A stretch of 60,844 nucleotides of DNA from NCBI GenBank assembly GCA_017471965.1, contig JAFURF010000076.1, positions 1-60,844 on the forward strand, given 5' to 3'. The notes beneath the pieces are model-generated. The model saw only the letters and a list, made by a program, of their open reading frames with translations, was not told where the DNA came from and searched no databases. This document shows, piece by piece, positions 37,463 through 56,443 of this stretch; position 1 is the first letter of the stretch, and each line of letters starts with the position of its first letter. The position numbers and the translations under genes are program-made. The DNA is from Bacteroidales bacterium. GTDB taxonomy: Bacteria; Bacteroidota; Bacteroidia; Bacteroidales; UBA932.

Positions 37463-37912
37463 CTATTCTACAGGAATATTGTCGATTCTGACGAATTTCT
37501 GGACGAATGATTCATCATCCTTGGCAATCCAGGTCATTTCTGTTGCAGTAAGGTCCTTGATGATGTATCGGTGGGCCCAGTCTCCGGAATCATGATCGTA
37601 ATTGCCTCTGATGATCGCGCCAAGTTCCGGATCAGTCTCGAGAAAATATGAGCCTGTCACAGTATGCGGAACATTCAAGAAGGAATCCAGATTCTGATAC
37701 ATAGTGTATGTCCGATCATTGCGGACTATGTCCAGATACACATAAGTTCCGTCCATAAGGCCGGCGCCGTTCCACTCGGACAGTTCCCATTGCCCGGAGA
37801 TATTGTTTGCATTGACCTCAAGATATTCGACTTTCAGTTCCGTGTCTTTCTCACATGACGCCACAAACGAAGACACCATCAAAATTGCAATCAGATATTT
37901 TATATATTTCAT
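37463..37912 (-). CDS. Small lipoprotein with lipocalin-like domain
   Basis: A 149-aa lipoprotein with lipobox VASC (Cys20) followed by acidic residues (EKDTE), which favours surface export in Bacteroidetes. A beta-rich body begins NNISGQWELSEWNG and includes YTMYQNL, resembling the lipocalin-like/DUF5004-type lipoproteins of this phylum. Ligand unknown. It is the last gene of the SusC operon, 43 nt after the DUF1573 gene, and its stop lies next to that of the convergent LytTR gene. Confidence 0.7.
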   Translation of the reverse strand: MKYIKYLIAILMVSSFVASCEKDTELKVEYLEVNANNISGQWELSEWNGAGLMDGTYVYLDIVRNDRTYTMYQNLDSFLNVPHTVTGSYFLETDPELGAIIRGNYDHDSGDWAHRYIIKDLTATEMTWIAKDDESFVQKFVRIDNIPVE

Positions 37913-37955
37913 AACTTCAGTTGTTTTCTATATAGTTCAGATTTCCCGACTTACT

Positions 37956-38741
37956 TCAGTCGCCCGGGAATATGCTCACTGTTATTGACGACCTGCTCGG
38001 AGGCAGTCCCAGTCCTTTGAGGATCACCTTCATATATTTTCCGGGGGGCCTTGCCTGCGGGTCATATATTATCACTATCTCACCTTCCTGTCCGCTCAAG
38101 ACCGTCTGGGGCCTCGCTTCAAATGAAAGACATTCCGGAAGAAAAGCCTCTTCACATCCCAGTGTCAACGGCTTGTTGCCGACATTGATGAAGCGCAGTT
38201 TCTCCACCGCCCTCAGTCCTTCAGCAAAGGCCACCTCAGACCTGCGCAGACGGATCGCACCCATCTGGACCGGCCACTCACCTGCCATATCGGCTCCCGC
38301 AGAGACATCTACGCTCAGTCTCAGGACTGCAGCAGGTTCGTTTCCCTCACGGGTATATACGAAAATCCTTCGTTCAAACTTGCCCGGATGGCCTTTGGGA
38401 TCATATCTGACAGATATCTCAGTATTGTCCCCAGGCTCAAGCGACTGCTTCCCAGCCGTTGCTGTCAGGCAGGAACAGGTAGTCCTCAATGCCCTTATCT
38501 CAAGCCTTTCCGTACCAATGTTCTCCAGTTCATAGACAAATACCGACGGTGCATCGTCCTCATTCATCTTCGGAGCGACAATATGTCTGACATGGAATCC
38601 AAGAGACGCAGAGTCACAAGAAAGTCTTGGGGAAACCACTGCATCGAGCATGTCTTTCGGAACAATCCTGATCTGTGAGTATGAAATACAGGAAAGTCCG
38701 AAGAATATACAGCACCCGGATATGAATCCACGGAACGTCAT
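37956..38741 (-). CDS. DUF1573 domain protein
   Basis: A 261-aa exported protein (signal segment about 1-22). An Ig-like DUF1573 domain is visible: YELENIGTERLEIRALRTTCSCLTA followed by LEPGDNTEISVRYDPKGHPGKFERRIFVYT. A second, weaker copy is at about 165-250 (LRFINVGNKPLTLG, EIVIIYDPQARPPGKYMKVI). The function of the domain is unknown, and it often occurs beside surface or envelope systems. The gene starts 3 nt after the subtilisin gene ends. Confidence 0.8.
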   Translation of the reverse strand: MTFRGFISGCCIFFGLSCISYSQIRIVPKDMLDAVVSPRLSCDSASLGFHVRHIVAPKMNEDDAPSVFVYELENIGTERLEIRALRTTCSCLTATAGKQSLEPGDNTEISVRYDPKGHPGKFERRIFVYTREGNEPAAVLRLSVDVSAGADMAGEWPVQMGAIRLRRSEVAFAEGLRAVEKLRFINVGNKPLTLGCEEAFLPECLSFEARPQTVLSGQEGEIVIIYDPQARPPGKYMKVILKGLGLPPSRSSITVSIFPGD

Positions 38742-38744
38742 ATC

Positions 38745-40766
38745 CTAAAGCCAGCCATTTCCATTCGCACTCTCACGCACCGTGATGACAAAACGGTCTG
38801 TACGTGTTCCTGTGACAGATGCCTCGGTCTGTCCGGCCTTTATACCTTTTATCACCATCCGTCCGTCGACAATCGATGCTGTCGCGATACTGTTGTCAGC
38901 AACACTTACAGTGAAGGTATCTCCATCCATATAAATCGACGGCAAGACGGTCACTTGTCCGCCTTCCTGCATATATATATTCGGGAAAGTCATATCTACC
39001 CCGGCTCCCTCGATTGCCTTCAGAAGAGCATAGGCATTCACCTGTCCGTGTCCCATTCCGCCCTTGAAGGGTCTGAGGTCCAGTTTCTGCATAGGCGCAG
39101 AGAGTTCAAGATCTGCCACATATCTCTTGTACTGCTTGTCACCGGTCATGTATTCATCAATCGGCGTAGCGGTCTCATAGAGAAGATTCTTGAATTCTTC
39201 TGCCTTGAAATGCTTCCTGAGTCTGACTGCATAGGACAATCCCAATGCTGCAACTCCTGAAACATGAGGACAGGCCATCGAGGTTCCCTCCATATATCCG
39301 TAACCCGTACCGCTGATATGTTCCGGCAGGGTGGAAAGGATACAGCCTATGGCACCGTAATGATGTGTCTCATCCACATAGTTCCAGTAATAATCCTGAT
39401 CTCCGCCAGGAGCCGAAATCGTGGTGCCAGGACCATAGTTGCTGTATACTGCAGGGGTAAAGTCGCCTGCTGTCGCTGCAACCGCCACAAAATCCGGATA
39501 TGCGCCAGGATAACTTGCAGCAGGGGCGGCCTCATTTCCACCGGCAAAAACAGCAATACCTCCATCAATCACTCCATCAGGAGAACCTGCATTATGAATG
39601 AAGTAGTCAAGCGCCTTCTTCTCGATTACATTATATGTCTCCCATTCTTCGTCAGTAGCATATTGAGGAGTCCACTCATATGGATTTGCAGCACCGGAGA
39701 TATATCCCCAACTGCATTGAAGTATCACTGCACCATTATCGGCAGCGTACTTGATCGCTCTTACCTCGTCGAGAACAGTGCCGGCATATGCTCCTGAAAA
39801 TATCTGGCAGGACATGATCCTGACCCCGGGAACTTGCTCTCCATTACCTCCAGCAATCGAAGAGATACCTATACCGTTGTTGTTGACAGCAGCAATAACT
39901 CCTGCCACATGGGTTCCATGCCCTGTATCATTGATATCATCAGCACTCACAACACCGTGACCTTTCACAAAGTTATAGCCATGATAATCACCTGCATAAC
40001 CATTACCGTCATTATCCTCATGCGATCTCCATATCTCATCCTCATTCACCCACATGCTTGCCTTGAGGTCCGGATGCGAAACATCCACTCCTTCATCAAG
40101 AACTGCGACAATGATTGAAGGATCACCTGTAGACATAGACCATGCATCCTTGACCTGAACATCTGCCCCTTTTATGAACTTGTCAGGGCGCAGGTTACCG
40201 TCGTTAACCATATTCCACTGCTCTGAGAAATATGGGTCATCAAATACCTGAGAGGTACCTGAAACCATCTGACCGATCATTTCAGGAGTAAGAGGGACAG
40301 GCTTGTCATTCTCCCTTTTCAGTACCCTGTTGTATTCGACTCCTCTGACTTCTCCTAGTTCTGAAAGCCTTGCAGCAACATCCTCGACAGAATATTCTTC
40401 AGAAAAACTTACCACATACCACAGATGCAGTCCTTCTTCACGGGCCCTATCTTCAGTACGCGAATCTATAGGAAACACTCTCTCGATCCTATAGCCTTTG
40501 ACTCTGTCCAGTATCTCGTCAACGCTGAGGACACCGGAACGTGTCATCGGACGTGCAGGGCCACTCTTGGTTACAGCGGCCTTATCCAATATATCACTTA
40601 CACGAGGATCAAACCGGACAAGTATCTGTCCATCGACCACATCTTCAGACATCTGCGGCAATTTCTCTTCCTGAACAGGAGACATTCCTGGCCTGTCAAC
40701 AGAACAAGAAGCCATGACAGCCATAAAAGACACCGTCGTCAGCAACATTAATTTTCTTACTGTCAT
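38745..40766 (-). CDS. Surface subtilisin-like serine protease (S8 family lipoprotein)
   Basis: A 673-aa lipoprotein: lipobox VMASC (Cys21), a propeptide-like region (about 45-150, GQILVRFDP), an S8 catalytic domain (about 175-570) and a C-terminal Ig-like domain (about 595-665). The triad is complete: Asp224 (VAVLDEGVD), His283 (GHGTHVAG), Ser496 (GTSMACPHVSG), with oxyanion Asn411 (AGGNEA). It would act at the cell surface or in the periplasm on proteins. Only 2 nt separate it from the LRR/BACON gene upstream and 3 nt from DUF1573 downstream. It is the only recognisable enzyme of the SusC/SusD operon. Confidence 0.92.
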   Translation of the reverse strand: MTVRKLMLLTTVSFMAVMASCSVDRPGMSPVQEEKLPQMSEDVVDGQILVRFDPRVSDILDKAAVTKSGPARPMTRSGVLSVDEILDRVKGYRIERVFPIDSRTEDRAREEGLHLWYVVSFSEEYSVEDVAARLSELGEVRGVEYNRVLKRENDKPVPLTPEMIGQMVSGTSQVFDDPYFSEQWNMVNDGNLRPDKFIKGADVQVKDAWSMSTGDPSIIVAVLDEGVDVSHPDLKASMWVNEDEIWRSHEDNDGNGYAGDYHGYNFVKGHGVVSADDINDTGHGTHVAGVIAAVNNNGIGISSIAGGNGEQVPGVRIMSCQIFSGAYAGTVLDEVRAIKYAADNGAVILQCSWGYISGAANPYEWTPQYATDEEWETYNVIEKKALDYFIHNAGSPDGVIDGGIAVFAGGNEAAPAASYPGAYPDFVAVAATAGDFTPAVYSNYGPGTTISAPGGDQDYYWNYVDETHHYGAIGCILSTLPEHISGTGYGYMEGTSMACPHVSGVAALGLSYAVRLRKHFKAEEFKNLLYETATPIDEYMTGDKQYKRYVADLELSAPMQKLDLRPFKGGMGHGQVNAYALLKAIEGAGVDMTFPNIYMQEGGQVTVLPSIYMDGDTFTVSVADNSIATASIVDGRMVIKGIKAGQTEASVTGTRTDRFVITVRESANGNGWL

Positions 40767-40768
40767 AT

Positions 40769-42412
40769 CTATTCCTGAGTATTATTCGGGTTATACTTCT
40801 TGTTCACATAATGTTCATAATAATAGTCCAGACTTACAGGTTCGTTCGTGAAACCTGCATTCTGACCGTCTGATGTCTTTCCTTCCTGAGAAAAGATCAG
40901 GGAATAAGGAAGCCACAGATCCAGTTTCGGATGGAAAAGCAGCCAGTCAGGAAGTTCGCCGGTAAGACGGTTGAAATTGATGGCAAAGAAGTTTGCATCA
41001 GGCAGGACCTTCGGCAGACCTATCAGGACATCAGGCAAGGTATCGTTTGCATGTACCTCCTCTGCAGTCCACTTAGGAATATCCGGTTCATACTTCAGAT
41101 CCGGAATTTCTCCATGCAGATAGTTCACTGATAGCCTGATAGTATCAAGATTGCTCCATTTGAGAATCCTGACAGGGAAAGAAGGCTCATCTATCAGGCC
41201 ACCCACGTTCTTTCTCTTGTCATTGCTCAGGTCATATATGGTATGACGCTGGTTTGCGTTCATCACCAGAGCATGGAGATTAGGGAAATTCTCCTGAGTG
41301 AGTATGTCTGGAATGGTCTGGAAACAGTTGGAACTCAAATCAAGATATTCCAGATTCTTCAGATTCACAAAATCCGGATGCAGACTGACCAGACCATATG
41401 CTCCTATCGTCAGACGCTTGAGTTGAGTAAGTTTCGTTATGTATTCTCCAGTATCTATGCTCTTAAGGAACTGATTGGCATTGGAATAGAACACGATCTC
41501 CTCTGCCGCTGTCAGATACTGCACCTCGTAAGGGAGAGGTTCCTTCGTATTGAACATGAAGAACTGGACATATTTTACCCTTCCCTTGTTCGGGCCATCC
41601 TTCCAGACATGGACATTAGTCCAATGCTCAAGTCTTTCAGATGTGTCATATTCCATATAGCCGTTGAGTGCCCTGTTGATGGCCAGAATGGCGAGGGAAT
41701 CACCAGCCACAGTGTTTTCAGGGATAGGCATTGCCGCCTTCTGGACAATCTTCAATCCATCGTGAACTCCCATCTGCACCGGATGCTTAGGCTGGAACAC
41801 AATATCAGCGATCCTTTCCTTATCACGCGAATTGACCTTCCATTCAAACCGGACCACAGTGTTGCGTGGGCGCTCCTTTCTATCAAGATCGAGTTTTGCC
41901 TTCTCAAAGGTCAGCCATGAATCTGCACCTTCAGGGAGAACAACATCAAAGTCAATGTTTGCCTTGATCTTGACTTCGAAATAGCGTGAACCATATTCGG
42001 CAAAATCCTCTACATCAACCGTTGTCCGGTCAACTCTTATCTGATAATCATATCCATCCTGAACAATCGAGAAGTCATGTTTATCTTCGTCCGCATCAAG
42101 ACTTTGTATACGGACATCACCTGTACGAGGCTCGACATACAAGGTCGAATCCACAGAAATATGGCATACTGCATTTCCTCTGCCGTTTGCAGGCGATACG
42201 GAAATCCAAGGTACCTCTGTAACAACGACCCAATCGCCGTCAGATTCCACCTTGACCTCCAATGTACCTCCATCAGGACCTACAGGAAGTCTGTCATCCC
42301 CTGCACCAGTCTGTACATTGAATCCAAGACCGGAGTCATCAGGGCCACATGCACTGACTGCCGTAACGACTGAAATCATAAAAAATCTGATGAATCTCTT
42401 CATAATCGTCAA
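40769..42412 (-). CDS. BACON/LRR surface lipoprotein
   Basis: A 547-aa lipoprotein with lipobox VSAC followed by GPDDS, an acidic surface-export-like start. Two BACON-like Ig domains lie at about 40-235 (GDWVVVTEVPWISVSPANGRG; VLPEGADSWLTFEKAKLDL). A leucine-rich-repeat region covers about 325-500 (LKNLEYLDLSSNCFQTIPDIL, SNLDTIRLSVNYLHGEIPDL). BACON domains occur on carbohydrate- or mucin-binding proteins and LRRs bind proteins or glycans. I infer a ligand-binding role for the importer. An alternative start is the Met at codon 4. Confidence 0.82.
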   Translation of the reverse strand: MTIMKRFIRFFMISVVTAVSACGPDDSGLGFNVQTGAGDDRLPVGPDGGTLEVKVESDGDWVVVTEVPWISVSPANGRGNAVCHISVDSTLYVEPRTGDVRIQSLDADEDKHDFSIVQDGYDYQIRVDRTTVDVEDFAEYGSRYFEVKIKANIDFDVVLPEGADSWLTFEKAKLDLDRKERPRNTVVRFEWKVNSRDKERIADIVFQPKHPVQMGVHDGLKIVQKAAMPIPENTVAGDSLAILAINRALNGYMEYDTSERLEHWTNVHVWKDGPNKGRVKYVQFFMFNTKEPLPYEVQYLTAAEEIVFYSNANQFLKSIDTGEYITKLTQLKRLTIGAYGLVSLHPDFVNLKNLEYLDLSSNCFQTIPDILTQENFPNLHALVMNANQRHTIYDLSNDKRKNVGGLIDEPSFPVRILKWSNLDTIRLSVNYLHGEIPDLKYEPDIPKWTAEEVHANDTLPDVLIGLPKVLPDANFFAINFNRLTGELPDWLLFHPKLDLWLPYSLIFSQEGKTSDGQNAGFTNEPVSLDYYYEHYVNKKYNPNNTQE

Positions 42413-42418
42413 TTATCT

Positions 42419-45046
42419 TTAATTCAACATATAGTCACAGTTTCTGATGTCCTGAGTCTTGTCATAGATCAGATAGTATGCACCAACCTGATGGGCGTAG
42501 CAGATATCCGAGGCATCAAAAATGATTTCGGGATTATCGCTGATATCAAGATAGTATATGAGGGTGGAGATAGTATCCTCGATCTTTCCAAGGTTGTTGG
42601 ATCCGATATAGAATCCCCTCAATCCTCTGTGATTATACAGACCGGTAGGCCACTCGGACAGGCATCTTTCACCGTTCTCGTCCCTCTGTCCTCTGATAGC
42701 GAATACAGTCAGATACTGGCTGTCCAGAGGTTCCCAAGGGAAGGAAGAGAACCTGTTGTATGAAAGTTCCACTCCATACAGATACGGCATGTTGCCCGCA
42801 TGCATTTCCCACGGAAGATCGTCGAGGTCATTATATGAAAGGTCCAATGAAGACAACTGGATGGCGTTCTCATATTCAAACGAGCCTTCAGGGATGGCAT
42901 TGATGTTACATCCTCTGAAATTGATGTTCATGATCTTCGAATTGGACTTCGCCAACTCGACAGGATATGCTGTCAACTCAGGATTGTTGGCTATGGTAAG
43001 CGTCTGGACAAATATGCCATTGAAGTCTTCAGGGAATGATCCTATATGATTGTATGAGAAATCCACCGACACGATGGCGAACATGGATTTCGCATCGAAT
43101 ATATTCGGGAATTCCGTGAACTCATTGTTCCTTACAGAAAAGGTTTCTGCATCTTCCAGATAGCAGAACACACCGTCATCGCCTACAGGGAACTCCGAAA
43201 GCATGTTATTGTCAAGATACAGTTGCACAGGCTTGATATCTCTGCCCCATGCCGTCTCTATCTTTCTTATCTTATTGGACGAGAAGTCCATCATACCTAT
43301 CTTCTTCATGTTCGTGATCTCGGCCGGGATGACCTCAAGATTATTCTCGTTCAGATAAAGTATCTGGATCTTTTCACGTGAAGGTCCTGTGGCAAGTGCC
43401 TTGAATCCCTTCAGGATCTCTTCGGAACTCCACTGCCTGTTGTTTGCAAGATTTGCAGTTATAAGTCCCGGCATCTTCGCCAATGCCATAGGGAATTCCT
43501 TCATCTTCGGACAATTATATATCTCGACATCAGTACATGAAACAAGATTTGAAAGTTCGTCAGGCAGACTTTCGATCTCGCTGTTCGCTATGAAAAGTTG
43601 CTCAAGGTTGATAAGATTGCCTATCTCGGCAGGAAGACTCTTCAGACCATTGTTGACCTTGCCTGAAATCATGTCCATAGGACGTATCTTCATTCTTCCT
43701 GTACCCTTGTCAATTATTTCATCCTCTGATAATTCATCATACAATGCCGTCTCAGGAATGGTCTTCCCATGCTCGGCGAACGCCCTTGCGATAGGTTCCG
43801 ACATCTGAGTCACCGGATGCATTCTCTCAAGATACCTCTTATGACGTCGTATACGGTCTGAAGTGCCCTTACCGGCAGCGGCAGTCGGGTCATAACCGGC
43901 AAGATTGGAATCATTATGCGAACCGAGATACAACTCCACCATCTCCGTAAGTTGTCCCAGAGCGGCAGGCATGTCACCGTAGAATCCGAAATCACTCAGA
44001 TTGACAAGGGCGACACGTCCGTTCGAATGCAGGGAAACGCCCGGCTGGTCTCCCCACAGGTCCGGGTCCTTGTTGAAGTTCCAGTTTGTACCGGCAGGAT
44101 AATTCTCTCCGACATAATACCACTCGGGGCCGTTCAGAGCAAGCCATATCTCACGCAAGGCATAATAGTCCTTGATGTATTCGTCTGCCTCATGAAGAGT
44201 GACAGGGACGTCAGCATCGGCAATCTCATTATCCTTCACGACAAAAGAATAATCCACCTGAGAATTTGTCTCAAGAGGAGTCCTGTCCTGGGCAAAGACA
44301 GAGTAAGAAACCACTCTGTATTCTCCAGCACGTAAAGATACGAGCGTATCGCATACACTTGACGAAGTCCTGTATCCGTCCTCCACGCCATCATCTGTAA
44401 AATGAAGGGAGAACTCTGCAGGCAACATTTCAAAGACTGTCGTCGTATTACCGGTCCTGACAGAAAGCGTAACAAAAGATATCTCGTCAAAAGTATACTC
44501 GCCAGTCTGCGACTTCACTTCCGGAAGTGCAGACATATCCTTGACAAGCCTGAACCGCACCTTGCCTCTCTCCACTGATTCCGCAACAAGATCATGTTGG
44601 CAAAGCCCTCCTGCAACGATTTCAAACGAAGAAAATCCTTCTGATGGCGTCCTTACATAAAGAGGCTGATCCTCTTTGTCAAAAAGCGTGAAGGTAAGTA
44701 TCCTGTATTCGCCTGTCAGAAGTTTCATCTTGTCACTTCTGAGACCATATTCAGCATTTTCTTCATCATAAGAATTCATGACAAGAGTCTGAGTGATGTC
44801 ATTGTCACCATACCTCAAGGTGACCTTGATCTTAGTCACATCCTTAAGATATTCAAGTTGCGGCACGAGAGCCTTTGTTCCCGGGTACGATGCCTCCTTG
44901 TACAACTTGAACTGCACATATCCATAGTCATGTTCACGATAGTCCGGTTCAACGATCTTTGAGCAGCCGGAAATCCCCATTATCATGAAACATGTCAGGA
45001 AAGCCAGAAATATATGTCTTAATGATTTCATAAACTTAACATTCAT
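42419..45046 (-). CDS. Large LRR surface lipoprotein (DUF4458-like N-terminus)
   Basis: An 875-aa lipoprotein with lipobox ISGC and two related beta-rich domains in the N-terminal 290 residues (YVQFKLYKEASYPG; GKVRFRLVKDMSALPEV), like the DUF4458 lipoproteins of Bacteroides. A long leucine-rich-repeat array follows from about residue 330 to the end (LPAEIGNLINLEQLFIANSEIESLPDEL and more). The repeats follow the LxxLxxLxLxxNxLxxIP pattern. It probably displays a protein- or glycan-binding solenoid outside the cell. The start may be the Met at codon 6. It is 11 nt downstream of the 795-aa lipoprotein gene. Confidence 0.82.
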   Translation of the reverse strand: MNVKFMKSLRHIFLAFLTCFMIMGISGCSKIVEPDYREHDYGYVQFKLYKEASYPGTKALVPQLEYLKDVTKIKVTLRYGDNDITQTLVMNSYDEENAEYGLRSDKMKLLTGEYRILTFTLFDKEDQPLYVRTPSEGFSSFEIVAGGLCQHDLVAESVERGKVRFRLVKDMSALPEVKSQTGEYTFDEISFVTLSVRTGNTTTVFEMLPAEFSLHFTDDGVEDGYRTSSSVCDTLVSLRAGEYRVVSYSVFAQDRTPLETNSQVDYSFVVKDNEIADADVPVTLHEADEYIKDYYALREIWLALNGPEWYYVGENYPAGTNWNFNKDPDLWGDQPGVSLHSNGRVALVNLSDFGFYGDMPAALGQLTEMVELYLGSHNDSNLAGYDPTAAAGKGTSDRIRRHKRYLERMHPVTQMSEPIARAFAEHGKTIPETALYDELSEDEIIDKGTGRMKIRPMDMISGKVNNGLKSLPAEIGNLINLEQLFIANSEIESLPDELSNLVSCTDVEIYNCPKMKEFPMALAKMPGLITANLANNRQWSSEEILKGFKALATGPSREKIQILYLNENNLEVIPAEITNMKKIGMMDFSSNKIRKIETAWGRDIKPVQLYLDNNMLSEFPVGDDGVFCYLEDAETFSVRNNEFTEFPNIFDAKSMFAIVSVDFSYNHIGSFPEDFNGIFVQTLTIANNPELTAYPVELAKSNSKIMNINFRGCNINAIPEGSFEYENAIQLSSLDLSYNDLDDLPWEMHAGNMPYLYGVELSYNRFSSFPWEPLDSQYLTVFAIRGQRDENGERCLSEWPTGLYNHRGLRGFYIGSNNLGKIEDTISTLIYYLDISDNPEIIFDASDICYAHQVGAYYLIYDKTQDIRNCDYMLN

Positions 45047-45057
45047 CTGTACATCGG

Positions 45058-47445
45058 TTACTCGGAAAGATCAAGAGTGCATACCAGCACAAAGACTATC
45101 GCATCAGACTTGTCCAGGAAATTTACCGATGCCATATATACATTCTCCGGAAGTGTGATACCGTCCGGCTGACTGACAGAGTCCGGCCTGTTCATGTATA
45201 TCTCCACAGCACCTTCGTCATCAAGCGCTACTTCGCCCAGAATATCTGAAGGTCCGAAATATTCATCATAAATGACATCGTTCACCCTGAAGAAAGACCT
45301 GTAGGCATAAGGATTGACATTATGCTTTCTGACAGACGACGGGATCCTGATCTTCAAAGGCATACCCTCCATCTTATACGTCAGATGATAAACTACATTC
45401 ATTCCTTCACTGAAGTGATCGAAAATATCTCCTTCGGTCAGATGCTCAAGAGTCGCACCTGTCATCTGAGCATATTGTGCTGCCATTTCAGTAAACTCAA
45501 CCACCACATCGTCAACTATGACAATCGGATCATATCTGCAATAAACAATGGCAAGCGTCGCTCCCGTTTCATCATAGAAGACGACATAACCTTCTGACAA
45601 CGATTCTGAAGGTGTCCGGTCCTTATACATGACGATAACACCGCTGGTCTTCGTATCATCTTCTGCCTCGAACTGAAGCCAGAAGTCAGAATTCTGTTCT
45701 TTTCTTGCAGCATTGAATACCTTCACCGATGCATAAGGCCTGGCAAGAGACATGCGTCCGGCATCACTAGCATATACATTATTGTATGTAAGTTCATAGA
45801 CATAATCTGTCTCGCCGAAATATGTAACAAGGCGAGGATTCGTCGATTCCTTGAAAGTCAGGCCGGCAGTCTCCATGTCAGAATCCGTACTGATCATGGT
45901 GATGTAATCCATGTCTGCCCCATATTGGGTAAGGCTGACCGCATAGCGGGCCATATCTTCCTTCAGGGTACCGTCACCATTGAAATAATCTTCAGGCGCA
46001 TATGCTGAAGCACAGAACAGGATATATGCATGGCGCTCCTTGGAAGCGTTCTTCTCAGGTCTAACGGTAACGGTCCTATGCTGAAGGACTTCCGCTCCTG
46101 ACACAAATGCCTGCACATCCATTGTCACCCATTCAGGATTATCTGTAACTCTCTTGCCGTCCGCCATCTCGACCGCAACAACATCAGAATCCTTTGTGCC
46201 GAGGAACCATGCAGTTGCCGACATATCCTGATATCCGACAGATGTCATCAGATGCGAATCTGAATTGAACTCCCACTCGGTCAAGGCCATATCAATGCCG
46301 AATGAGAACTTGTCGGCGACTCCCGGTATGGTGACATCAATCTCATGGATTGTCTCGCCCATAAATTTGAATATTATCTTTTCAGTCTTATCCTCTAGCG
46401 GATAATGCATAGGATCACCCATCAAAGTGAACATCACGGTACCGGCCTTGTTCTCAGGCGTTTCCTCTGAGTAGCGCGGATACAGCCATTCAGGACATTC
46501 CAAGGTCCAGTTGCATTTTGCCTCAACCTTGACAGGCATCCTGAAATCGCTTCCAGGCCATACAAGGGTAAGAGCATCTACGGGCTCGGCCGTATACAGA
46601 TAACCGCCGCCTTCACCGAAAGAAAATTCCCCTTTATCATCCAGTACCGTTGAATAAAGAGCGATCTCACCACATGCAGGGACAGAAACAGGCAATGTCT
46701 TCAATACTGTTTCTCCGACCATGAATCTGACTTCACCCTCAGCAGCATCTATAGAAGAACCGGTAAAGACCACTTCAATGCTGCCGACCTTTGACTCCGG
46801 CTCGTCCACTGACATCCACTGCGGAATGTCACTGGTCCATTCCGAATTGGACACTACCCTGACAGGTATCCTGAAATCAGCATCTGATTCAGACCAGATG
46901 AGGTCAAGCGACGTCGCTTCGGAAGCCTCATACTCATACCCGCCTGCCCCATTCGTAACATATGCGCCATTTTCGACTTTCGCTGCATATACAGAAAGAG
47001 TCCTCTCCTTTGCCGGAAGCATATATCTGGCAATCACTTTTGACTGGGAATTCATCTTCATGGTCACTTCACATGAATAATTCTTGTCAAAATCCTGATT
47101 CTCTGTAACTCCAATCTTGACAGTCACGGCACTTTCTGATGCCTTGCCCTTAAGTTCTGTCTTTGTAAACGACCCATCCTTAAGCCAGAACCACTCTCTG
47201 ACTTCAGTCGGGACTGAAATCTCCCAATCATAATTAGGGGTAAAGGTCAGGGTAAGTTCAGAACCTGGGGCAACATTGTTGTCTTCAACCAAAGATGGGA
47301 AATTCGGTGTTTCCTCCTCAGGCTTTGTACCACCTGATCCGGAACCTTCAGTTCCTTCAGGCTCTGCTTTTCCACATGAAAGAGCCACAACTACAGCAGT
47401 CACAGCAACTGCGCAAACCTTGAATATATAATTTACCTTTTTCAT
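45058..47445 (-). CDS. Multi-domain BACON-like lipoprotein
   Basis: A 795-aa lipoprotein with lipobox ALSC (Cys24) and a Gly/Glu/Pro-rich linker (EGTEGSGSGGTKPEEE). Three or more BACON-like modules follow (WEISVPTEVREWFWL; SNSEWTSDIPQWMSVDEP; AKCNWTLECPEWLYP). The C-terminal half, from about 385, is unassigned and may match Bacteroidota DUF5003-type proteins. The repeated modules share a Trp-containing core and conserved spacing, so they arose by internal duplication. Likely a surface binding protein of the SusC/SusD operon; the ligand is unknown. Confidence 0.72.
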   Translation of the reverse strand: MKKVNYIFKVCAVAVTAVVVALSCGKAEPEGTEGSGSGGTKPEEETPNFPSLVEDNNVAPGSELTLTFTPNYDWEISVPTEVREWFWLKDGSFTKTELKGKASESAVTVKIGVTENQDFDKNYSCEVTMKMNSQSKVIARYMLPAKERTLSVYAAKVENGAYVTNGAGGYEYEASEATSLDLIWSESDADFRIPVRVVSNSEWTSDIPQWMSVDEPESKVGSIEVVFTGSSIDAAEGEVRFMVGETVLKTLPVSVPACGEIALYSTVLDDKGEFSFGEGGGYLYTAEPVDALTLVWPGSDFRMPVKVEAKCNWTLECPEWLYPRYSEETPENKAGTVMFTLMGDPMHYPLEDKTEKIIFKFMGETIHEIDVTIPGVADKFSFGIDMALTEWEFNSDSHLMTSVGYQDMSATAWFLGTKDSDVVAVEMADGKRVTDNPEWVTMDVQAFVSGAEVLQHRTVTVRPEKNASKERHAYILFCASAYAPEDYFNGDGTLKEDMARYAVSLTQYGADMDYITMISTDSDMETAGLTFKESTNPRLVTYFGETDYVYELTYNNVYASDAGRMSLARPYASVKVFNAARKEQNSDFWLQFEAEDDTKTSGVIVMYKDRTPSESLSEGYVVFYDETGATLAIVYCRYDPIVIVDDVVVEFTEMAAQYAQMTGATLEHLTEGDIFDHFSEGMNVVYHLTYKMEGMPLKIRIPSSVRKHNVNPYAYRSFFRVNDVIYDEYFGPSDILGEVALDDEGAVEIYMNRPDSVSQPDGITLPENVYMASVNFLDKSDAIVFVLVCTLDLSE

Positions 47446-47462
47446 AAGCGTATCTGTTTATT

Positions 47463-48368
47463 TTACATTCCTTCCTCTATTCTGAGGCGCTCAGCCTCCT
47501 CGTCGCTGATCCACTCCATGATGTTATAGAAGTGACCTACGGTTCCTACAGGGGTACCAAGATTCTCCACATACATTTCCGTCCATATGTAAAGATAACT
47601 TCCGCAAGGGTAGAATACCGAATCATAGGCTGCACTGTTCCTGACGAGTATCTTGTCATCACCATGTGCAGTTCCGAAGAATGAAGCCTCGTCACTTGCG
47701 ATCTGGTCCGCATCCATGGTCACCAGAGGTGACATAGGGTCCTCCGGATGGAAGGTCATCGTCACATCATAACCGTCGTTGATCCAGTTGCGGCAGATGA
47801 TCATGTTTTCCTCTGTAGGATGCTTCTCCGTGAAGATAAGCCTCTGATAGGAACCGGTGACACTATAGTTGTACAGGAACATCGACGTCAGGACACAATA
47901 TCCGGTGAAGTCATTGATATCGAACGGACATATCTTCATCAGTACAGCCTTTGCGGTTTTTCCGTAGAGAGGCATCTCCAGTTTTTCATTCATGACCAGA
48001 CGGAGTTCGAATCCAAGAGAGTCGGTGTCTCCGATATTGTCATAGTAACCATGGACCATGACATCCGCCCGGTTTTCCCCGGCCTTGATGGTGATGGTAT
48101 TTGACTGAAGTCTGTAATGATAGTTCTCGATGGCATTGCTGCCCTTGTCGATGATCTCAACGCCGAAGGTCCTGTCGTAGTCCCTGATAACGGTAGAAAC
48201 CACCGGAATAGCGAACCATTCGACATCCTTCTGTACAGGATAAGTTGACAAGGTGTCGGCAAACATGACATATTCAGCATCTGAATAGGTCACATATCTT
48301 TCGTGGCAGGCGCTCAGGAGAATGACTGCTACGAAAGGAAGTGCAATATATTTCAATATCTGCTTCAT
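47463..48368 (-). CDS. SusCD-associated lipoprotein (DUF4984/DUF4843-like)
   Basis: A 301-aa lipoprotein with lipobox LSAC (Cys21). An N-terminal Ig-like part (about 30-140) contains the phrase VEWFAIPVVSTVIRDYDRTFGVEI, typical of a family that follows SusC/SusD genes. A C-terminal beta-rich domain (about 145-290) has conserved Trp and Tyr residues. Lipoproteins of this type sit on the SusD lid of peptide- or glycan-importing SusCD complexes in Bacteroides. Here it is 11 nt after susD and 17 nt before the BACON-like gene. Confidence 0.7.
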   Translation of the reverse strand: MKQILKYIALPFVAVILLSACHERYVTYSDAEYVMFADTLSTYPVQKDVEWFAIPVVSTVIRDYDRTFGVEIIDKGSNAIENYHYRLQSNTITIKAGENRADVMVHGYYDNIGDTDSLGFELRLVMNEKLEMPLYGKTAKAVLMKICPFDINDFTGYCVLTSMFLYNYSVTGSYQRLIFTEKHPTEENMIICRNWINDGYDVTMTFHPEDPMSPLVTMDADQIASDEASFFGTAHGDDKILVRNSAAYDSVFYPCGSYLYIWTEMYVENLGTPVGTVGHFYNIMEWISDEEAERLRIEEGM

Positions 48369-48379
48369 ATATCTTCGTT

Positions 48380-49903
48380 TTATCTGTTACTTTCATTCGG
48401 CTGGACCTGGGAACCAGGAGAAATCAGTTCATGGTTCGGAATCGGCCACACAAAGAGAGGGTCTCCAGATTCAATCCTGAGTGAACTTCCCTCGGACTGT
48501 GTGTGGGACTGCGGCGTCCTCTCGAATCCTTTTCCCCAACGCTTGAGGTCCTGAAGGCGGAAGCCTTCCATATAAAGTTCGCGCACACGCTCATCCGAAA
48601 TGGTCTCAAGCCAGTTAGAAGAATTGACCGTGATGTTTCCACCTGATGTGAAACGGGTCTGACGCAACGCCGTAAGGTCTGCGGAAGCAGCATTGTAGTC
48701 CGGAGATGCAAGATTGCAATATGCCTCCGCCCTTATAAGATACTGCTCAGCAAGTCTGAGAGGCTTAGGCATGTTCACATGGTAGATGAGTTTTGCCATC
48801 AGGGACTCATTACCGTAATACTTGACAAGAAGAGGCCATGTCAGAGAGTGCGGATATCCTGTCTGGAGGGTCGCGAAATATGCATTGTATCTCATGTCTC
48901 CGGAAGCATACAGGTCAAGCACCCACTGCGCAGGCACATAATCCGGATAATAATAGTAGAAGTCACTTGTGAAGTTAAGGAACACCGATCCCTGCGCACC
49001 TCCATATGATGTCTCTGTATATCCGATACGCCAGATGTTCTCATATGACGAATCGTTCGTCCATAGATAATCAAGGAAAGTCTGGGTCGAAGTGACATAA
49101 CTTCTTGACGTCGCCAGTTCGAAGATGTCTGATTCTATAAGTTTCGTAGACTCTGTAATCGCTGTCTGCCAGTCCTGCATATAAAGGGCAACCCTTGCAT
49201 GAATAGCATGCGCCGCGGCATTTGTAAAATATGCCGCATCAAAATAGTCGTAATCGGCATCAAGGAGTTCCTCCGCCCTTCCCAGATCATCCAGTACAAA
49301 CTTATAAGAATCATAAAGAGATGCACGCTGCTTAGGCTTTTCACCGAAGTACGTGTCGGCAAGGACCACACCAAGTTCATTTTCCGCAGTAGCAGGATCA
49401 TATGCCTTGCAGAAACACTTTATCAGTTCCGAGTATGCAAGCGCCCTTGCGCAATATACCTCGCCTGTATAGAAATCCAATGTCTGGATGGAATCTCCGT
49501 CAGTAAGGGACTTTCTGAGAGCATCAACCTGGTCAAGGAAGAAGTTGCACCTTCCTATGACAGCATAGAGAGAGGCATAAACCGCCTCGATTTCCCTATT
49601 TGTCGATCGGATATCCCACAACCACAATGTACCGTATGTATTTGAATTACCCTGAACAGCATAGACCAGATCGGACTGGATATCAGGACAAAGCGTAAGA
49701 TATCCGCTGTAGAGTCCGCTGCTCATGTAGGCAGTGTATATTCCTGTAAGGGTCTGTTCAGCATCATTGAGAGTCTTCATTCCGTCTTCCTCAAGGATAT
49801 AGTCTCCCGGAAGTTTCTCCAGACAGGATGAAAGACCGAAGGCAACAGCAATCAAAGCCGCCGTCTTCCATATTTTCATATATATATTCTTCATCATTTC
49901 CAT
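48380..49903 (-). CDS. SusD/RagB-family nutrient-binding lipoprotein
   Basis: A 507-aa outer-membrane lipoprotein with lipobox LSSC near residue 27. The SusD fold is shown by the N-terminal DAEQTLTGIYTAY segment, TPR-like helices in the middle, and the C-terminal signature (PLRLAEQYLIRAEAYCNLA, LTALRQTRF, ERVRELYMEGFRLQDLKRWG). It acts as the hinged lid of the SusC barrel and binds the incoming substrate. It follows susC by 3 nt. Confidence 0.95.
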   Translation of the reverse strand: MEMMKNIYMKIWKTAALIAVAFGLSSCLEKLPGDYILEEDGMKTLNDAEQTLTGIYTAYMSSGLYSGYLTLCPDIQSDLVYAVQGNSNTYGTLWLWDIRSTNREIEAVYASLYAVIGRCNFFLDQVDALRKSLTDGDSIQTLDFYTGEVYCARALAYSELIKCFCKAYDPATAENELGVVLADTYFGEKPKQRASLYDSYKFVLDDLGRAEELLDADYDYFDAAYFTNAAAHAIHARVALYMQDWQTAITESTKLIESDIFELATSRSYVTSTQTFLDYLWTNDSSYENIWRIGYTETSYGGAQGSVFLNFTSDFYYYYPDYVPAQWVLDLYASGDMRYNAYFATLQTGYPHSLTWPLLVKYYGNESLMAKLIYHVNMPKPLRLAEQYLIRAEAYCNLASPDYNAASADLTALRQTRFTSGGNITVNSSNWLETISDERVRELYMEGFRLQDLKRWGKGFERTPQSHTQSEGSSLRIESGDPLFVWPIPNHELISPGSQVQPNESNR

Positions 49904-49906
49904 AAT

Positions 49907-52849
49907 TTAGAACAGGATGTCAAGACCGAAGGTATACTGACGCGACATCGGATACTGTGCCGCATAAAGATTGGTGACACCTTCAGGATCAAGTCCGGAG
50001 AAGTTGGTGAAAGTCAAGAGGTTCTGGCCTTGGGCATAGAATCTGAGTCCTCTTATGAAGCCTGTCCTCTTCAGCAGGCCTGAAGGTAGTGAATAGGCCA
50101 GCATCACATTCTTCAGACGAAGGAATGAAGCATCCTCCAGAAGCCTGCTGTCAAACTCGGTATATTCACCATGACGAGGAATATCTGTTACATCCCCTGG
50201 CTGTTTCCAACGGTCAAGAAGACGGCTTGACTGGTTATAAGTCATGAAACGTCCGTTCGACTCATCGAAGTATCTGTCGTTGTTAAGCATCCATCTGTCA
50301 CCGACCCAACTGAACTGAGCGGTCACACTCAAGCCTTTCCATGACAGGCCTGTACCGAATCCGCCCTGCCATGGAGCATGGTATGTCTTTCCGATCATCA
50401 CCTTGTCCTCATCCCTGAGTTCGTTGGTGATGTTTCCGTTCCTGTCATACCAGAGTGCATCTCCGTTTGCAGGATTGACTCCGGCGTAACGGTTGATATA
50501 GCACTCGCCCACAGGATGTCCGACCACCAATTTCGTGCTTGTATTGGAGGTCTCGTATTCGTTGACGCCATTATAGAGTTCGGTAAGGCGGTTATGGTTA
50601 TAGCCGACATTGGCATTCACGCTCCACGTGAAGTCCTTGATCTGAAGGACTGTGGCATTGACATTGAGTTCCGCACCCATGTTGACCATGGCTCCTACAT
50701 TGTCCCACTTGTATCCGTAGCCGTTTGACTGGGAATAAGCCAACGGAACAGACATGAGCATGTCCGTAGTCTTCTTGCTGTAGAGTTCCAGGTCGACATT
50801 CAGACGGTTCCAGAATCCGAGATGGAAGGCGATGTTGCTTGTCCAAGTGCTCTCCCATGTGAGGTTCTCATTTCCCGGCTGAACAGGTGCTACCCCGGCA
50901 TCCCCCACATAGTCAGAGCCGCCTCCTATAAGAGCAAGATGCTCATAATTAGGGATTTCAGAGTTTCCGGATGTTCCTGAACTGATAGCGACCTGAGCCA
51001 GCGTAAGCCAGTTGCGTGTATCTGCCATGAACGATTCGTTGCGTATGTTCCACATGAATCCGACTGCGCCGAAAAGTCCCCATCTGTTGTTTTTACCGAA
51101 CCTTGACGAACCGTCGGTACGGACAGATACCTCAGCATAATAGCGGTCGCTGAAATTGTACTCTCCTCTTGCGAAGAAAGATACACGGGAATAATCCGAT
51201 GCTGACGTACTTGTCCATGACGTCGCCCTTGTTCCTGTCGATATATCGGTAAGCAGAGAATTATTCTGGCCGGCAGTGCTTACGCTGAAAGCCTCGAGAT
51301 GATAATCCTGCCACTCATGCCCCAGAAGGAAATTGAAATCATGTATATTGTCTATATCGAAACGGTATGTCAATGTATTTGACAACTGGAGGTTGAGTCC
51401 GTCGCTCGAACTTCTTGCGGCAGATCCCTCTCCAAGATTTGGAGCATAATCAGGGAAAGACTGGCTGAAGCCTGTAGTATGCGAAAAGTCCACACCGAAC
51501 TGCGACTTGAATACAAGATTCCTATAGAGGTTCAGTTCTGCATACACTGTAGAGAACACCTTGTACTTCTTGTATGTCAAAGGATTGTTCTCCAGCCACT
51601 CCAAAGGATTCTGACCGGAACCCATCCATGTGCCGTCATTGATCGAAGCGAGAGATCCGTCAGCCTTGTAAGGATTCCAGTACGGAAGCATGAAACGGGC
51701 GGCAGAAATAGGCGTCACAAGAGTATATGCGCCTTCGTCAGCCTGCTGGATACCCTGATAGTTGAACATGGTGTTCGTTCCCATCTTCAGCCATCTGGCC
51801 ATCTGCTGCTCCACATTGAACCTCATCGAATAGCGGGTGAACTGCGAACCGGGGGCGATACCCTGCTGATCATAGAAGCCACCTGAAAAATAATAGTTTG
51901 TGGTCTCAGTCGCTCCGGAAACGGAAAGTTCGTGACTCTGCAGCATGGCAGAATCATTGAACACAGCATTCATCCAGTTCACATCTGTCTTTGCAAGGAA
52001 GTCATAATTCTGACCGGCTGTCAGTCCGAGTTCCTTTTCATACTGTATACGCTCAGGAGTAGTCATCAGGTCCCAGTTTCCATGGGCAAGAGCAGACCAC
52101 CCCATCTGCATACGATAATTGACATTCGGCTTGTCCATGTTGCGGCCTCGCTTGGTGGTGATGACGATCACACCGTTGGCTGCACGCGCTCCGTAGATGG
52201 AAGTGGACGAAGCGTCCTTAAGTACAGACATGCTCTCGATGTCGGCTGGATTGATGGTATTGAAGTCCGATGCGGATATGGCGACTCCATCAAGAATATA
52301 AAGAGGCGCTGTACCCGAATTGATGGAATTGGTACCACGGATAGTCATGGTAGCGGACGAACTCGGCTCACCTGTACTTGAAAGCACTGTAAGTCCCGCC
52401 ACCTGTCCCTGCAGAGCCTGATCAAAGGCTGCAGTAGGAGTGTTCTCCAATTTTTCAGACTTCACGGTAGAAACGGAACCCGCTACGGTTCCCTTCTTTC
52501 TGACACCATAAGCGATCACCACAACATCGTCAAGTTTCAGACTCTCCGGCTGCATCACGACATTATGTGCGAATGACTCGACCTGAGGCACGACAACCTT
52601 TTCTTCATTGAATCCGATGCTGGAGAAGGTCAGTTCAGTACCGGGAGAAACGAATATCTCATAATCACCGTCAAGAGAGGTGATGACACCGTTACCCGAA
52701 CCGTCCATGACTGCGACTCCGATCATCGGAAGACCATCATCAGCAGATGTGACCACACCGCTGACCTTTACGGAAGTCTGCGCAGACAACGCTACTGCCG
52801 TGACGGCCGACAACAGAATTGTCAGAACCAGTTTTAATGATTTTTTCAT
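49907..52849 (-). CDS. SusC/RagA-family TonB-dependent outer-membrane transporter
   Basis: A 980-aa outer-membrane importer: signal peptide (about 1-23), carboxypeptidase-like regulatory domain (about 27-105, VKVSGVVTSADDGLPMIGV), plug (about 115-230, with ALQGQVAGLTV, SGTAPLYILDGV and SSTSIYGARAANGVIVITTKRG), then a 22-strand barrel ending in an aromatic residue (TFGLDILF). There is no N-terminal STN domain, so no built-in sigma/anti-sigma signalling. It opens the nine-gene operon. The promoter is TTG-N18-TATCTTTG at 52883-52911. Confidence 0.96.
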   Translation of the reverse strand: MKKSLKLVLTILLSAVTAVALSAQTSVKVSGVVTSADDGLPMIGVAVMDGSGNGVITSLDGDYEIFVSPGTELTFSSIGFNEEKVVVPQVESFAHNVVMQPESLKLDDVVVIAYGVRKKGTVAGSVSTVKSEKLENTPTAAFDQALQGQVAGLTVLSSTGEPSSSATMTIRGTNSINSGTAPLYILDGVAISASDFNTINPADIESMSVLKDASSTSIYGARAANGVIVITTKRGRNMDKPNVNYRMQMGWSALAHGNWDLMTTPERIQYEKELGLTAGQNYDFLAKTDVNWMNAVFNDSAMLQSHELSVSGATETTNYYFSGGFYDQQGIAPGSQFTRYSMRFNVEQQMARWLKMGTNTMFNYQGIQQADEGAYTLVTPISAARFMLPYWNPYKADGSLASINDGTWMGSGQNPLEWLENNPLTYKKYKVFSTVYAELNLYRNLVFKSQFGVDFSHTTGFSQSFPDYAPNLGEGSAARSSSDGLNLQLSNTLTYRFDIDNIHDFNFLLGHEWQDYHLEAFSVSTAGQNNSLLTDISTGTRATSWTSTSASDYSRVSFFARGEYNFSDRYYAEVSVRTDGSSRFGKNNRWGLFGAVGFMWNIRNESFMADTRNWLTLAQVAISSGTSGNSEIPNYEHLALIGGGSDYVGDAGVAPVQPGNENLTWESTWTSNIAFHLGFWNRLNVDLELYSKKTTDMLMSVPLAYSQSNGYGYKWDNVGAMVNMGAELNVNATVLQIKDFTWSVNANVGYNHNRLTELYNGVNEYETSNTSTKLVVGHPVGECYINRYAGVNPANGDALWYDRNGNITNELRDEDKVMIGKTYHAPWQGGFGTGLSWKGLSVTAQFSWVGDRWMLNNDRYFDESNGRFMTYNQSSRLLDRWKQPGDVTDIPRHGEYTEFDSRLLEDASFLRLKNVMLAYSLPSGLLKRTGFIRGLRFYAQGQNLLTFTNFSGLDPEGVTNLYAAQYPMSRQYTFGLDILF

Positions 52850-52882: not shown

Positions 52883-52911
52883 CAAAGATACTGTTTTTTA
52901 TTGTATTTCAA
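52883..52911 (-). promoter_or_regulatory. Promoter of the SusC/SusD operon
   Basis: On the minus strand TTG (52909-52911), an 18-nt spacer and TATCTTTG (52883-52890) lie 33 nt before the susC start. Confidence 0.65.
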
Positions 52912-52935: not shown

Positions 52936-52966
52936 AAAAAGGGAACGGACCTCCCGGCCGGTTCCC
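52936..52966 (-). terminator. Terminator between the two lipoprotein operons
   Basis: GGGAAC (52941-52946) pairs with GTTCCC (52961-52966), and on the minus strand a T-run follows. Closer to the stop of the 777-aa gene, a 5-bp stem with a GAAA tetraloop and a short T-run (52991-53004) could terminate first. Both would isolate the upstream pair from the SusC operon. Confidence 0.65.
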
Positions 52967-55344: not shown

Positions 55345-56443
55345 AATCAGTAATATTTGTTATTCCCGGCAGTCCATAATAAGCCTCCACAATATCGCCC
55401 TTCAAATACACCTTACGTCCCAGCAGAGACGGATTGTCAACAAGATTCAAAGCATCCCTGACGGCACCTGACGGCAACTTGACGGACAGGCACGATGATC
55501 TGTCCGATGCTGTCGACCTTGACCCCAGCAATATGTTCGTACGGGAACTGAAAGGACCTTCAAACGAAGCAGACGTCGAGGTCAGGTCACCTCCCACGAC
55601 ATAGCCGCAAACCCAGACATCGGTCTCTCCAGACGACGCAACGGCCTGCTGGACGGTGAGAGCATCAGAGAAGCCGTCATCATCCGTTCCGCCACCGTTG
55701 CCACCACCGATGACATATTCTTCCGACAGCCAGTTTCTTGTAGTATCGACAGCAACCCGGATGGACTCGGAGGAAGAAGATGAAGAGGATGCCACGCTCA
55801 CCTTGATCCTTAACATATCCTGAGGCTGAAGGAGACGGGTCATGAGTATCCTGTCATTCCCTCCCTCGCTCAGCATGAGAGATACCGCTCCCGGGTGAAA
55901 ATAGGCGGCACGTCTTTCCGAATAGCCATACATCAGGCTACCCGAAGAAGACTTGAGGACCAGAGCCCCTCCAGGACATCCTGTCAGGAAACTCTCATCC
56001 ACACTCAGAATTACGCCGCAGTTCAACTGTCTGCATGTCAGCCTGACATTGGCAACCCCTCCGGACGGCACAACGACACACTGTTCATCACCGAACTGCG
56101 GCATAGCAAATGCAGGACGGACGAATTCACATGAACGCACCTTAACGGTATAACTGCCTGGCTTTACCATCATGGATTCGGGAGATGCACCATATGCACC
56201 TTCATATACGACCTTACCGTCCGGTCCCGTAACGGTAAGCAGAAAATCGCTGGTATCAGGAATATCCGGCGAAAACCGGGTCAACCTGCCGGCCTCACCC
56301 TCAAACGAAACCCGAAGTTCTCCTTCGGCTGAAGCATCTTCCGGATCTCCGAGCATACTGCAGGATTCCCAAGGCAGGACAGCCAATACTGAAAAACAGA
56401 AATACTTGAGCAGGAACAGACATCCTGCATGAATCTTTTTCAT
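55334..56443 (-). CDS. DUF4493-like lipoprotein with C-terminal OB-like DUF6359 domain
   Basis: A 369-aa exported protein with a hydrophobic N-terminus and an atypical lipobox (PWESC). The N-terminal domain (about 40-235: SGELRVSF-type start, DFLLTVTGPDGKVVYEGAY, PGSYTVKV) matches the DUF4493/fimbrillin-like pattern. A serine- and glycine-rich linker leads to a C-terminal domain (about 265-365: VWVCGYVVGG, GRKVYLKGDIVEAYYGLPGITNI) like the OB-fold DUF6359 module. Likely a surface or pilus-associated protein. It is the first gene of a two-gene operon with a -7 box at 56491-56498. Confidence 0.68.
   Translation of the reverse strand: MKKIHAGCLFLLKYFCFSVLAVLPWESCSMLGDPEDASAEGELRVSFEGEAGRLTRFSPDIPDTSDFLLTVTGPDGKVVYEGAYGASPESMMVKPGSYTVKVRSCEFVRPAFAMPQFGDEQCVVVPSGGVANVRLTCRQLNCGVILSVDESFLTGCPGGALVLKSSSGSLMYGYSERRAAYFHPGAVSLMLSEGGNDRILMTRLLQPQDMLRIKVSVASSSSSSSESIRVAVDTTRNWLSEEYVIGGGNGGGTDDDGFSDALTVQQAVASSGETDVWVCGYVVGGDLTSTSASFEGPFSSRTNILLGSRSTASDRSSCLSVKLPSGAVRDALNLVDNPSLLGRKVYLKGDIVEAYYGLPGITNITDYEK

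What the first reader, a model, noticed from the sequence alone, without database searches (positions are those of the whole stretch)
37463..52849. Nine-gene SusC/SusD operon with a surface subtilisin and LRR lipoproteins but no carbohydrate-active enzyme
Seen: susC, susD, DUF4984-like, BACON-like, LRR, BACON/LRR, S8 protease, DUF1573 and lipocalin-like genes run on one strand. Gaps are 2-17 nt (43 nt before the last gene), there is one promoter, and no glycoside hydrolase, lyase, sulfatase, ECF sigma factor or hybrid two-component gene is present. Known: SusCD systems with peptide substrates exist (RagAB of Porphyromonas gingivalis; SusCD pairs of Bacteroides found with bound peptides and extra lipoproteins). 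Inference: a protein-utilisation or host-protein-targeting locus in which LRR/BACON lipoproteins capture substrate, the subtilisin cleaves it and SusCD imports the peptides.
Basis: partly seen in the sequence, partly recalled or inferred. Interest (0 to 1): 0.72.

Follow-up and report, generated by a model that had tools for sequence, protein, structure and literature searches.

The report
Surface protease and peptide-uptake operon
A nine-gene operon in an uncultured gut bacterium appears to make a surface machine that captures proteins, cuts them with a subtilisin-type protease and imports the pieces through a peptide-type transporter; the same gene order recurs in related gut bacteria, and the protease gene usually has a small partner gene close by whose role is unknown.

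Summary
In detail: nine genes on the - strand, one promoter-like site before susC, no carbohydrate-active enzyme in the operon, no ECF sigma factor or hybrid two-component gene among the flanking genes scanned. The order is conserved: of 60 loci read from whole genomes, 44 have all nine genes in order, 6 keep S8 with a changed tail, 6 lack S8 and lipocalin, 4 are cut. Peptide use is well supported, not proven. The S8 catalytic residues are invariant in 48 of 48 sequences. Of 30 SusC proteins in this genome three are RagA-like, and all three have a peptidase in their operon. DUF4984 and DUF4458 are rare in the order and occur together. Bacteroides thetaiotaomicron BT0207-08 and BT0211-13 carry matching annotations (PMC10434189), so the system is testable. 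New here: compact S8 genes are followed one-to-one by a lipocalin-like lipoprotein, also in a second operon family (30 of 31 S8 genes), suggesting a dedicated inhibitor or partner. One comparison shows a mosaic operon. Substrate, surface location and inhibition are inferred.

The parts
49907..52849 (-). SusC, RagA-clade TonB-dependent outer-membrane transporter (980 aa)
   Evidence: TIGR04056 780 bits; best solved relative RagA, E=2e-169; RagA clade in trees
48380..49903 (-). SusD lid lipoprotein (507 aa)
   Evidence: SusD_RagB and SusD-like_3; RagB among PDB matches at about 8e-13, not the best
47463..48368 (-). DUF4984 lipoprotein (301 aa)
   Evidence: DUF4984 E=4.3e-46; partial correlation of identities with SusC 0.47
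45058..47445 (-). 795-aa lipoprotein, loosely BACON-like, most variable member of the operon; proposed substrate-capture protein
   Evidence: mean pairwise identity 27% against 37-72% for the other genes; BACON only E=0.014
42419..45046 (-). DUF4458 + leucine-rich-repeat lipoprotein (875 aa)
   Evidence: DUF4458 E=8.8e-47, LRR_10 3.9e-37; near full-length match to solved structure 4ecn, E=3e-150
40769..42412 (-). BACON + LRR lipoprotein (544-547 aa; ATG start likely at 42403)
   Evidence: BACON E=3.1e-7, LRR_4 2.8e-6
38745..40766 (-). S8 subtilase lipoprotein with S8_N prodomain (673 aa); D224, H286, N411, S496 intact
   Evidence: Peptidase_S8 3.4e-40, S8_N 7e-35; catalytic residues invariant in 48 of 48
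37956..38741 (-). DUF1573 protein, no convincing lipobox, probably periplasmic (261 aa)
   Evidence: DUF1573 E=5.2e-22; lipobox pattern in only 5 of 55 homologues
37463..37912 (-). Lipocalin-like lipoprotein (149 aa); proposed dedicated partner, perhaps inhibitor, of the S8 protease
   Evidence: of 58 loci, with S8 in 52 and absent together with S8 in 6; next to S8 in a second operon family
52883..52911 (-). Promoter-like motif TTG-N18-TATCTTTG upstream of susC
   Evidence: such a motif in 28 of 55 susC upstream regions, 1.4 expected
52941..52955 (-). Terminator-like hairpin with T run between the upstream gene and susC

Best explanation
The operon encodes a surface protein-utilisation machine. 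Seven lipoproteins are probably displayed on the cell surface around a RagA-type SusC with its SusD lid. The two LRR proteins and the rapidly varying 795-aa protein capture a protein substrate; the subtilisin, activated by loss of its S8_N prodomain, cuts it; the SusCD pair imports the peptides with TonB energy. DUF4984 works with the transporter, DUF1573 in the periplasm. The lipocalin-like lipoprotein is a dedicated partner of the protease, most likely restraining it. Shown here: gene order, domains, intact triad, RagA-clade membership, one promoter-like site, S8-lipocalin linkage. Inferred: surface location, binding roles, peptide substrate, inhibition.
For: Nine-gene order in 44 of 60 loci. 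DUF4984 in 7 of 393 and DUF4458 in 8 of 393 genomes of the order, seven genomes shared; DUF4984 in 89 of 400 same-genus genomes. A RagA chain gives 404 bits with the window SusC, 416 and 373 with two others; the other 27 of 30 own-genome SusCs reach at most 207; trees. The three RagA-clade SusCs of this genome lie with S8, S8 and BACON-M64 peptidases. A neighbouring SusC group has C10 peptidases in 3 loci, L286, L288, L295. Triad invariant in 48 of 48. A different SusC locus of the same genome has pectinesterase, acetyl xylan esterase and a hybrid two-component gene, which shows what an ordinary PUL looks like here.
Against: No ligand, expression or localisation data. Six loci have the core without S8 or lipocalin. 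In the strict RagA clade outside this genome only 1 of 4 fetched non-operon loci has a peptidase beside it (L283). Two SusC loci outside the clade (L292, L294) have a gene of peptidase family S51, so such linkage is not special to the clade. The SusD is not especially RagB-like. BT_2264, another SusC reported with peptides (recalled), is distant (112 bits). Acidic residues after the lipid cysteine are modest (means 1.05-2.12 of 6 positions) and had no control set. Some relatives have regulators or a carbohydrate enzyme next to the operon: an AraC gene inside it in L214, a GH43 gene on the opposite strand 87 nt beyond it in L200.
Confidence: 0.66

Rival explanations
1. The locus takes up glycopeptides or glycans from glycoproteins such as mucin: the protease exposes or trims a protein backbone and other loci supply glycosidases.
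For: SusCD systems are mostly glycan importers; BACON domains are common in glycan-acting surface proteins (both recalled). This genome has 30 SusC genes over the cut-off, so other loci could supply glycosidases. One relative has a GH43 gene beside the operon, on the opposite strand (L200).
Against: No carbohydrate enzyme in the operon here and no extra ORF of 120 aa or more between the nine genes in the 44 in-order loci; SusC clusters with the peptide transporter RagA, not with the levan or dextran SusCs.
Confidence: 0.18
2. The protease is not for feeding: it processes surface proteins or attacks host or competitor proteins, and SusCD serves another ligand or clears the products.
For: An S8-lipocalin pair also occurs without SusCD in the 20 kb read (own contig C70, L052); S8-less core operons exist; the operon is a mosaic in one comparison, as expected under host or phage pressure.
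Against: S8 follows SusC in one gene run in 50 of 60 loci and SusC-SusD lie upstream on the same strand in 23 of 27 loci of the second operon family.
Confidence: 0.11
3. About the lipocalin alone: it is a small substrate-binding or assembly protein, not an inhibitor; its linkage to S8 reflects shared transport or folding needs.
For: Lipocalin folds bind ligands (recalled); it has the lipoprotein signal of the binding proteins. S8 already has a prodomain that can act as chaperone and inhibitor (recalled for subtilases).
Against: One-to-one pairing even for tandem S8 copies (L056, L315, L316) and absence next to the longer or more distant S8 genes (0 of 23) fit a protease-specific partner better.
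Confidence: 0.45

Closest known systems
BT_0206-BT_0214 region of Bacteroides thetaiotaomicron VPI-5482 (ends inferred)
   Same: A published table lists BT0207-08 as SusD and DUF4984 proteins and BT0211-13 as BACON, S8 serine peptidase and DUF1573 proteins (PMC10434189, passages read), matching this order. 4ecn, a near full-length relative of the LRR protein, is BT_0210 as I recall.
   Different: My searches of the held library gave no functional study (listings). The table gives lower expression under iron depletion with P 0.084-0.57, not significant. A BT_0212 mutant kept EspB cleavage (PMC6282197, passages read).
RagAB of Porphyromonas gingivalis
   Same: RagA is the nearest solved relative of the SusC and lies in its clade; RagAB takes up gingipain-cleaved peptides and has four allele types (PMC11817032, abstract and passages read).
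   Different: There the transporter is fed by proteases encoded elsewhere (recalled); here the protease and five lipoproteins besides SusD share the operon.
Levan and dextran utilisomes of B. thetaiotaomicron
   Same: SusCD with surface lipoproteins acting on one polymer (PMC7618045, listing and passages read; details recalled).
   Different: Glycan substrates; their SusCs are only distantly related to this one.
Protease-inhibitor gene pairs such as staphopain-staphostatin and SpeB-Spi (recalled)
   Same: Small protein encoded beside its protease, one per protease.
   Different: Here the protease is a lipidated S8 and the small protein a lipocalin-like lipoprotein; inhibition is untested. C10 peptidases beside related SusCs carry a fused I69 Spi-type domain.

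Membership tests
RagA-type SusC/D peptide transporter | SusC sequence clusters with RagA rather than glycan SusCs | tested here: met
   clade support 1.0 and 0.999; comparison with two glycan SusCs only (8aa4, 6zlt)
RagA-type SusC/D peptide transporter | Paired SusD resembling RagB | tested here: inconclusive
   RagB matches at about 8e-13 but four other SusDs score better
RagA-type SusC/D peptide transporter | Peptides bound or transported | not testable with these tools
   needs purification and mass spectrometry
Polysaccharide utilisation locus | SusC/SusD pair | tested here: met
Polysaccharide utilisation locus | Carbohydrate-active enzyme in the locus | tested here: not met
   none among the nine proteins; 44 of 60 loci have the nine genes with no further ORF of 120 aa or more between them; next-door genes scanned in 10 of 60 loci gave one GH43 on the opposite strand and one cell-wall glucosaminidase
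Polysaccharide utilisation locus | Linked hybrid two-component or ECF sigma/anti-sigma regulator | tested here: not met
   flanking genes of the window scanned; in relatives not tested systematically (L209 has an unscanned opposite-strand neighbour that looks like one by eye)
Outer-membrane utilisome | Surface lipoproteins stably bound to SusCD | not testable with these tools
   lipobox pattern in most homologues of the seven lipoproteins (40 of 59 to 50 of 54); complex formation not testable
Active S8 subtilase | Asp, His, Ser and oxyanion Asn present | tested here: met
   48 of 48
Lipocalin-type protease inhibitor | Lipocalin-like fold and inhibition of the partner | not tested

The most novel reading that the evidence does not exclude
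Compact lipidated S8 subtilisins of Bacteroidales come with a dedicated lipocalin-like surface lipoprotein, encoded next to the protease and duplicated with each protease copy, that acts as cognate inhibitor or immunity protein, keeping a cell-surface protease from digesting the transporter and binding proteins beside it. This would be a new kind of protease-inhibitor pair and would define a class of 'peptide utilisation loci'.
Probability: 0.33. Interest if true: 0.72.

Novelty: new variant of a known kind. Interest (0 to 1): 0.6.

Why it matters
SusCD systems are read by default as glycan importers. A conserved operon that couples a RagA-type SusCD to a surface protease and substrate-binding lipoproteins, with a counterpart in a genetically tractable species, would make protein foraging by gut Bacteroidales directly testable and give two simple markers (DUF4984, DUF4458) for it. 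The S8-lipocalin pairing gives a cheap biochemical test of a possible new inhibitor family.

Tried and rejected
LytTR regulator as part of the system: seen right beside the operon in some close relatives only, so not counted. Upstream genes: of 48 loci with an upstream ORF (40 on the same strand) 11 have a relative of the window's upstream gene P0011 and 8 form another group whose kinship I did not test; a terminator-like hairpin intervenes in the window; not counted. Downstream same-strand genes in relatives: a DUF4988 lipoprotein in 7 loci (3 of the 7 scanned), a TonB receptor in 4 (2 scanned), others single; none is in the window. Further mosaic pairs: apart from window-L058 I judged the extreme values to come from short BLAST pieces and do not use them. 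Partial correlations of gene identities show blocks SusC-SusD-DUF4984 and LRR-BACON/LRR-S8, but these are also neighbours on the DNA, so linkage alone could explain them. A C10 search of the own genome found nothing, but nothing rang in the controls either, so it is not evidence of absence. M64 genes of the own genome also occur away from SusC genes. Rfam and tRNA scans of the window were empty. Paper searches gave no description of this operon; one search was badly chosen and useless, one search returned mostly unrelated papers.
Full report
Observation. All nine genes exist as described. They lie on the - strand with gaps of 2-17 nt and one of 43 nt. The operon has no carbohydrate-active domain. 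A Bacteroidales-type promoter motif precedes susC in 28 of 55 loci with 1.4 expected, and occurs in 1 of 473 upstream regions of other operon genes. A terminator-like hairpin stands between the gene upstream and susC. The label 'BACON-like' for the 795-aa protein is weak (E=0.014).

Conservation. I read 60 loci from whole genomes. Fourteen were picked from the best S8 matches, leaving out four at contig ends, which favours S8; 11 of them have all nine in order and 3 are cut by contig or region ends. Forty-six were picked by the DUF4984 domain: 6 from the order survey and 40 of the 97 match places, chosen by me mostly for contig room, three deliberately as divergent low scorers. Of these 46, 33 have all nine in order, 6 keep S8 with the lipocalin before, or without, DUF1573, 6 lack S8 and lipocalin and carry a third LRR lipoprotein, 1 is cut. 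One search's count of 62 of 86 includes genomes fetched twice from a second collection. In L214 an AraC-type gene lies between lipocalin and DUF1573. Seven loci have a DUF4988-group lipoprotein next on the same strand. Of ten next-door genes scanned, L200 gave a GH43 on the opposite strand and L210 a cell-wall glucosaminidase on the same strand. Many named relatives are MAGs from cecum, colon or rectum of ruminants; some are labelled Alistipes, Tidjanibacter, Rikenellaceae or Bacteroides. In the order DUF4984 occurs in 7 of 393 genomes and DUF4458 in 8 of 393, the same seven plus one weak hit, the own genome included. In the same genus DUF4984 is in 89 of 400, many of them incomplete. The locus is an accessory system.

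Transporter type. The nearest solved relative of the SusC is RagA. Among 30 own-genome SusCs over the cut-off, a RagA chain matches L262 (416 bits), the window SusC (404) and L250 (373); the next reaches 207. FastTree puts these with RagA at support 1.0 and 0.999 with more sequences. L262 lies in an operon with an S8 protease, L250 with a BACON-M64 peptidase. The fourth SusC by similarity to RagA, L249, also lies in an S8 operon. I did not scan the genes around all other own-genome SusCs. One that I scanned holds pectinesterase, acetyl xylan esterase and a hybrid two-component gene, an ordinary PUL.

Wider test. Of 22 further SusC matches in 148 genomes of the order I fetched 20. In the strict RagA clade one of four has a peptidase beside it (L283, two S8 with type IX tails and a PorV-like gene); in L282, L284 and L285 I saw none. 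In the next group (21 tips, support 0.947) three of eight have C10 peptidases with I69 domains (L286, L288, L295); in L287, L291 and L293 the genes scanned gave none; L289 ends and L299 is followed by an opposite-strand gene, so both are uninformative. Among eight outside loci, scanned in part, one has GH30 enzymes (L298) and two have genes of peptidase family S51 (L292, L294). So peptidase linkage is repeated in and near the RagA clade but neither universal nor special to it.

Protease. Asp224, His286, Asn411 and Ser496 are invariant in 48 of 48 aligned S8 proteins. A lipobox pattern is found in most homologues of the seven lipoproteins and in few DUF1573 (5 of 55) or SusC (7 of 58). Acidic residues follow the cysteine, as in surface export signals of Bacteroidota (recalled); no control set was measured.

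S8-lipocalin pairing. In 58 loci with at least seven operon genes S8 and lipocalin are both present in 52 and both absent in 6. The S8-less loci L147, L149 and L231 form one branch of the SusC tree but not, so this is one or two events. A second operon family gives independent support: 27 loci (20 fetched, 7 earlier), 23 of them with SusC and SusD upstream on the same strand. In them 31 S8 genes have a following gene; in 29 it is lipocalin-like by ORF calling (28 at E<=1e-5, L307 at 1.4e-5) and in one more (L304) by a frame search; L314 is the exception. I left out a low-scoring S8 frame in L316 and an S8 at the end of L321 with no following gene. Some of these loci are close relatives of each other. 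Gaps are mostly short or overlapping, and tandem S8 copies in L056, L315 and L316 each have their own lipocalin. An S8 on own contig C70 without SusCD in the stretch read, and one in another family (L322), also have it. Longer or more distant S8 genes in 15 loci have none: 0 of 23 S8 frames, one of them a fragment; L323 among them is compact with a lipobox but distant in sequence.

Mosaic. Against a sheep cecum MAG (L058) DUF4984 is 97%, lipocalin 99% and the second half of DUF1573 98-100% identical in DNA, slightly above the flanks (LytTR 94%, 581 nt beyond it 92%; two other parts of the window 85% and 93%), while SusC (416 codons seen), SusD, both LRR genes and S8 are 69-74% and the 795-aa gene 54%. 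This looks like allele replacement of the transporter and of the capture-cleavage genes. It is one pair. RagAB also has four allele types (PMC11817032, abstract).

Known homologue. A published transcriptome table lists BT0207-08 (SusD, DUF4984) and BT0211-13 (BACON, S8 peptidase, DUF1573) of B. thetaiotaomicron (PMC10434189), which fits the same order. That region's ends and BT_0210 as 4ecn are my inference and recall. A BT_0212 mutant has been made and kept EspB cleavage (PMC6282197). My searches found no functional study in the held library, which lacks most subscription papers.

Conclusion. The operon should be filed as a new variant of SusCD systems, RagA type, with its own protease; not as a polysaccharide utilisation locus.

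Noticed in passing
window 37463-52849 vs L058: Operon is a mosaic: DUF4984, lipocalin and the 3' half of DUF1573 near-identical, the rest about 70% identical in DNA (54% for the 795-aa gene).
   Followed up: partly
L147, L148, L149, L231, L232, L234: S8-less version of the operon with a third LRR lipoprotein and, where readable, a further lipoprotein-like gene of 347-363 aa; in L149 the gene there (399 aa) contains a withheld stretch.
   Followed up: partly
G000:C21:44340-61104 (L054, L278): Two divergent RagA-clade SusCD operons back to back, one with an S8, one with a BACON-M64 peptidase, and a resolvase-like gene between them (label from its sequence start, not from a domain search).
   Followed up: partly
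L330 (G303:C8:1225000-1244900) and L329: Tandem S8_N proteases (11 S8_N matches in one genome of 2.4 Mb, 8 in another of 2.2 Mb).
   Followed up: no
window 53011-56443: Two genes directly upstream (Big_2/DUF4906; DUF4493/DUF6359); relatives of the first precede the operon in 11 of 48 loci.
   Followed up: partly
L051 14412-17840 (G000:C9): A 1142-aa protein with six Big_2 stretches upstream of the SusCD-S8-lipocalin operon.
   Followed up: no
L145, L195, L196, L201, L213, L215, L218: A DUF4988-group lipoprotein follows the operon on the same strand, a possible tenth gene in part of the genus.
   Followed up: partly
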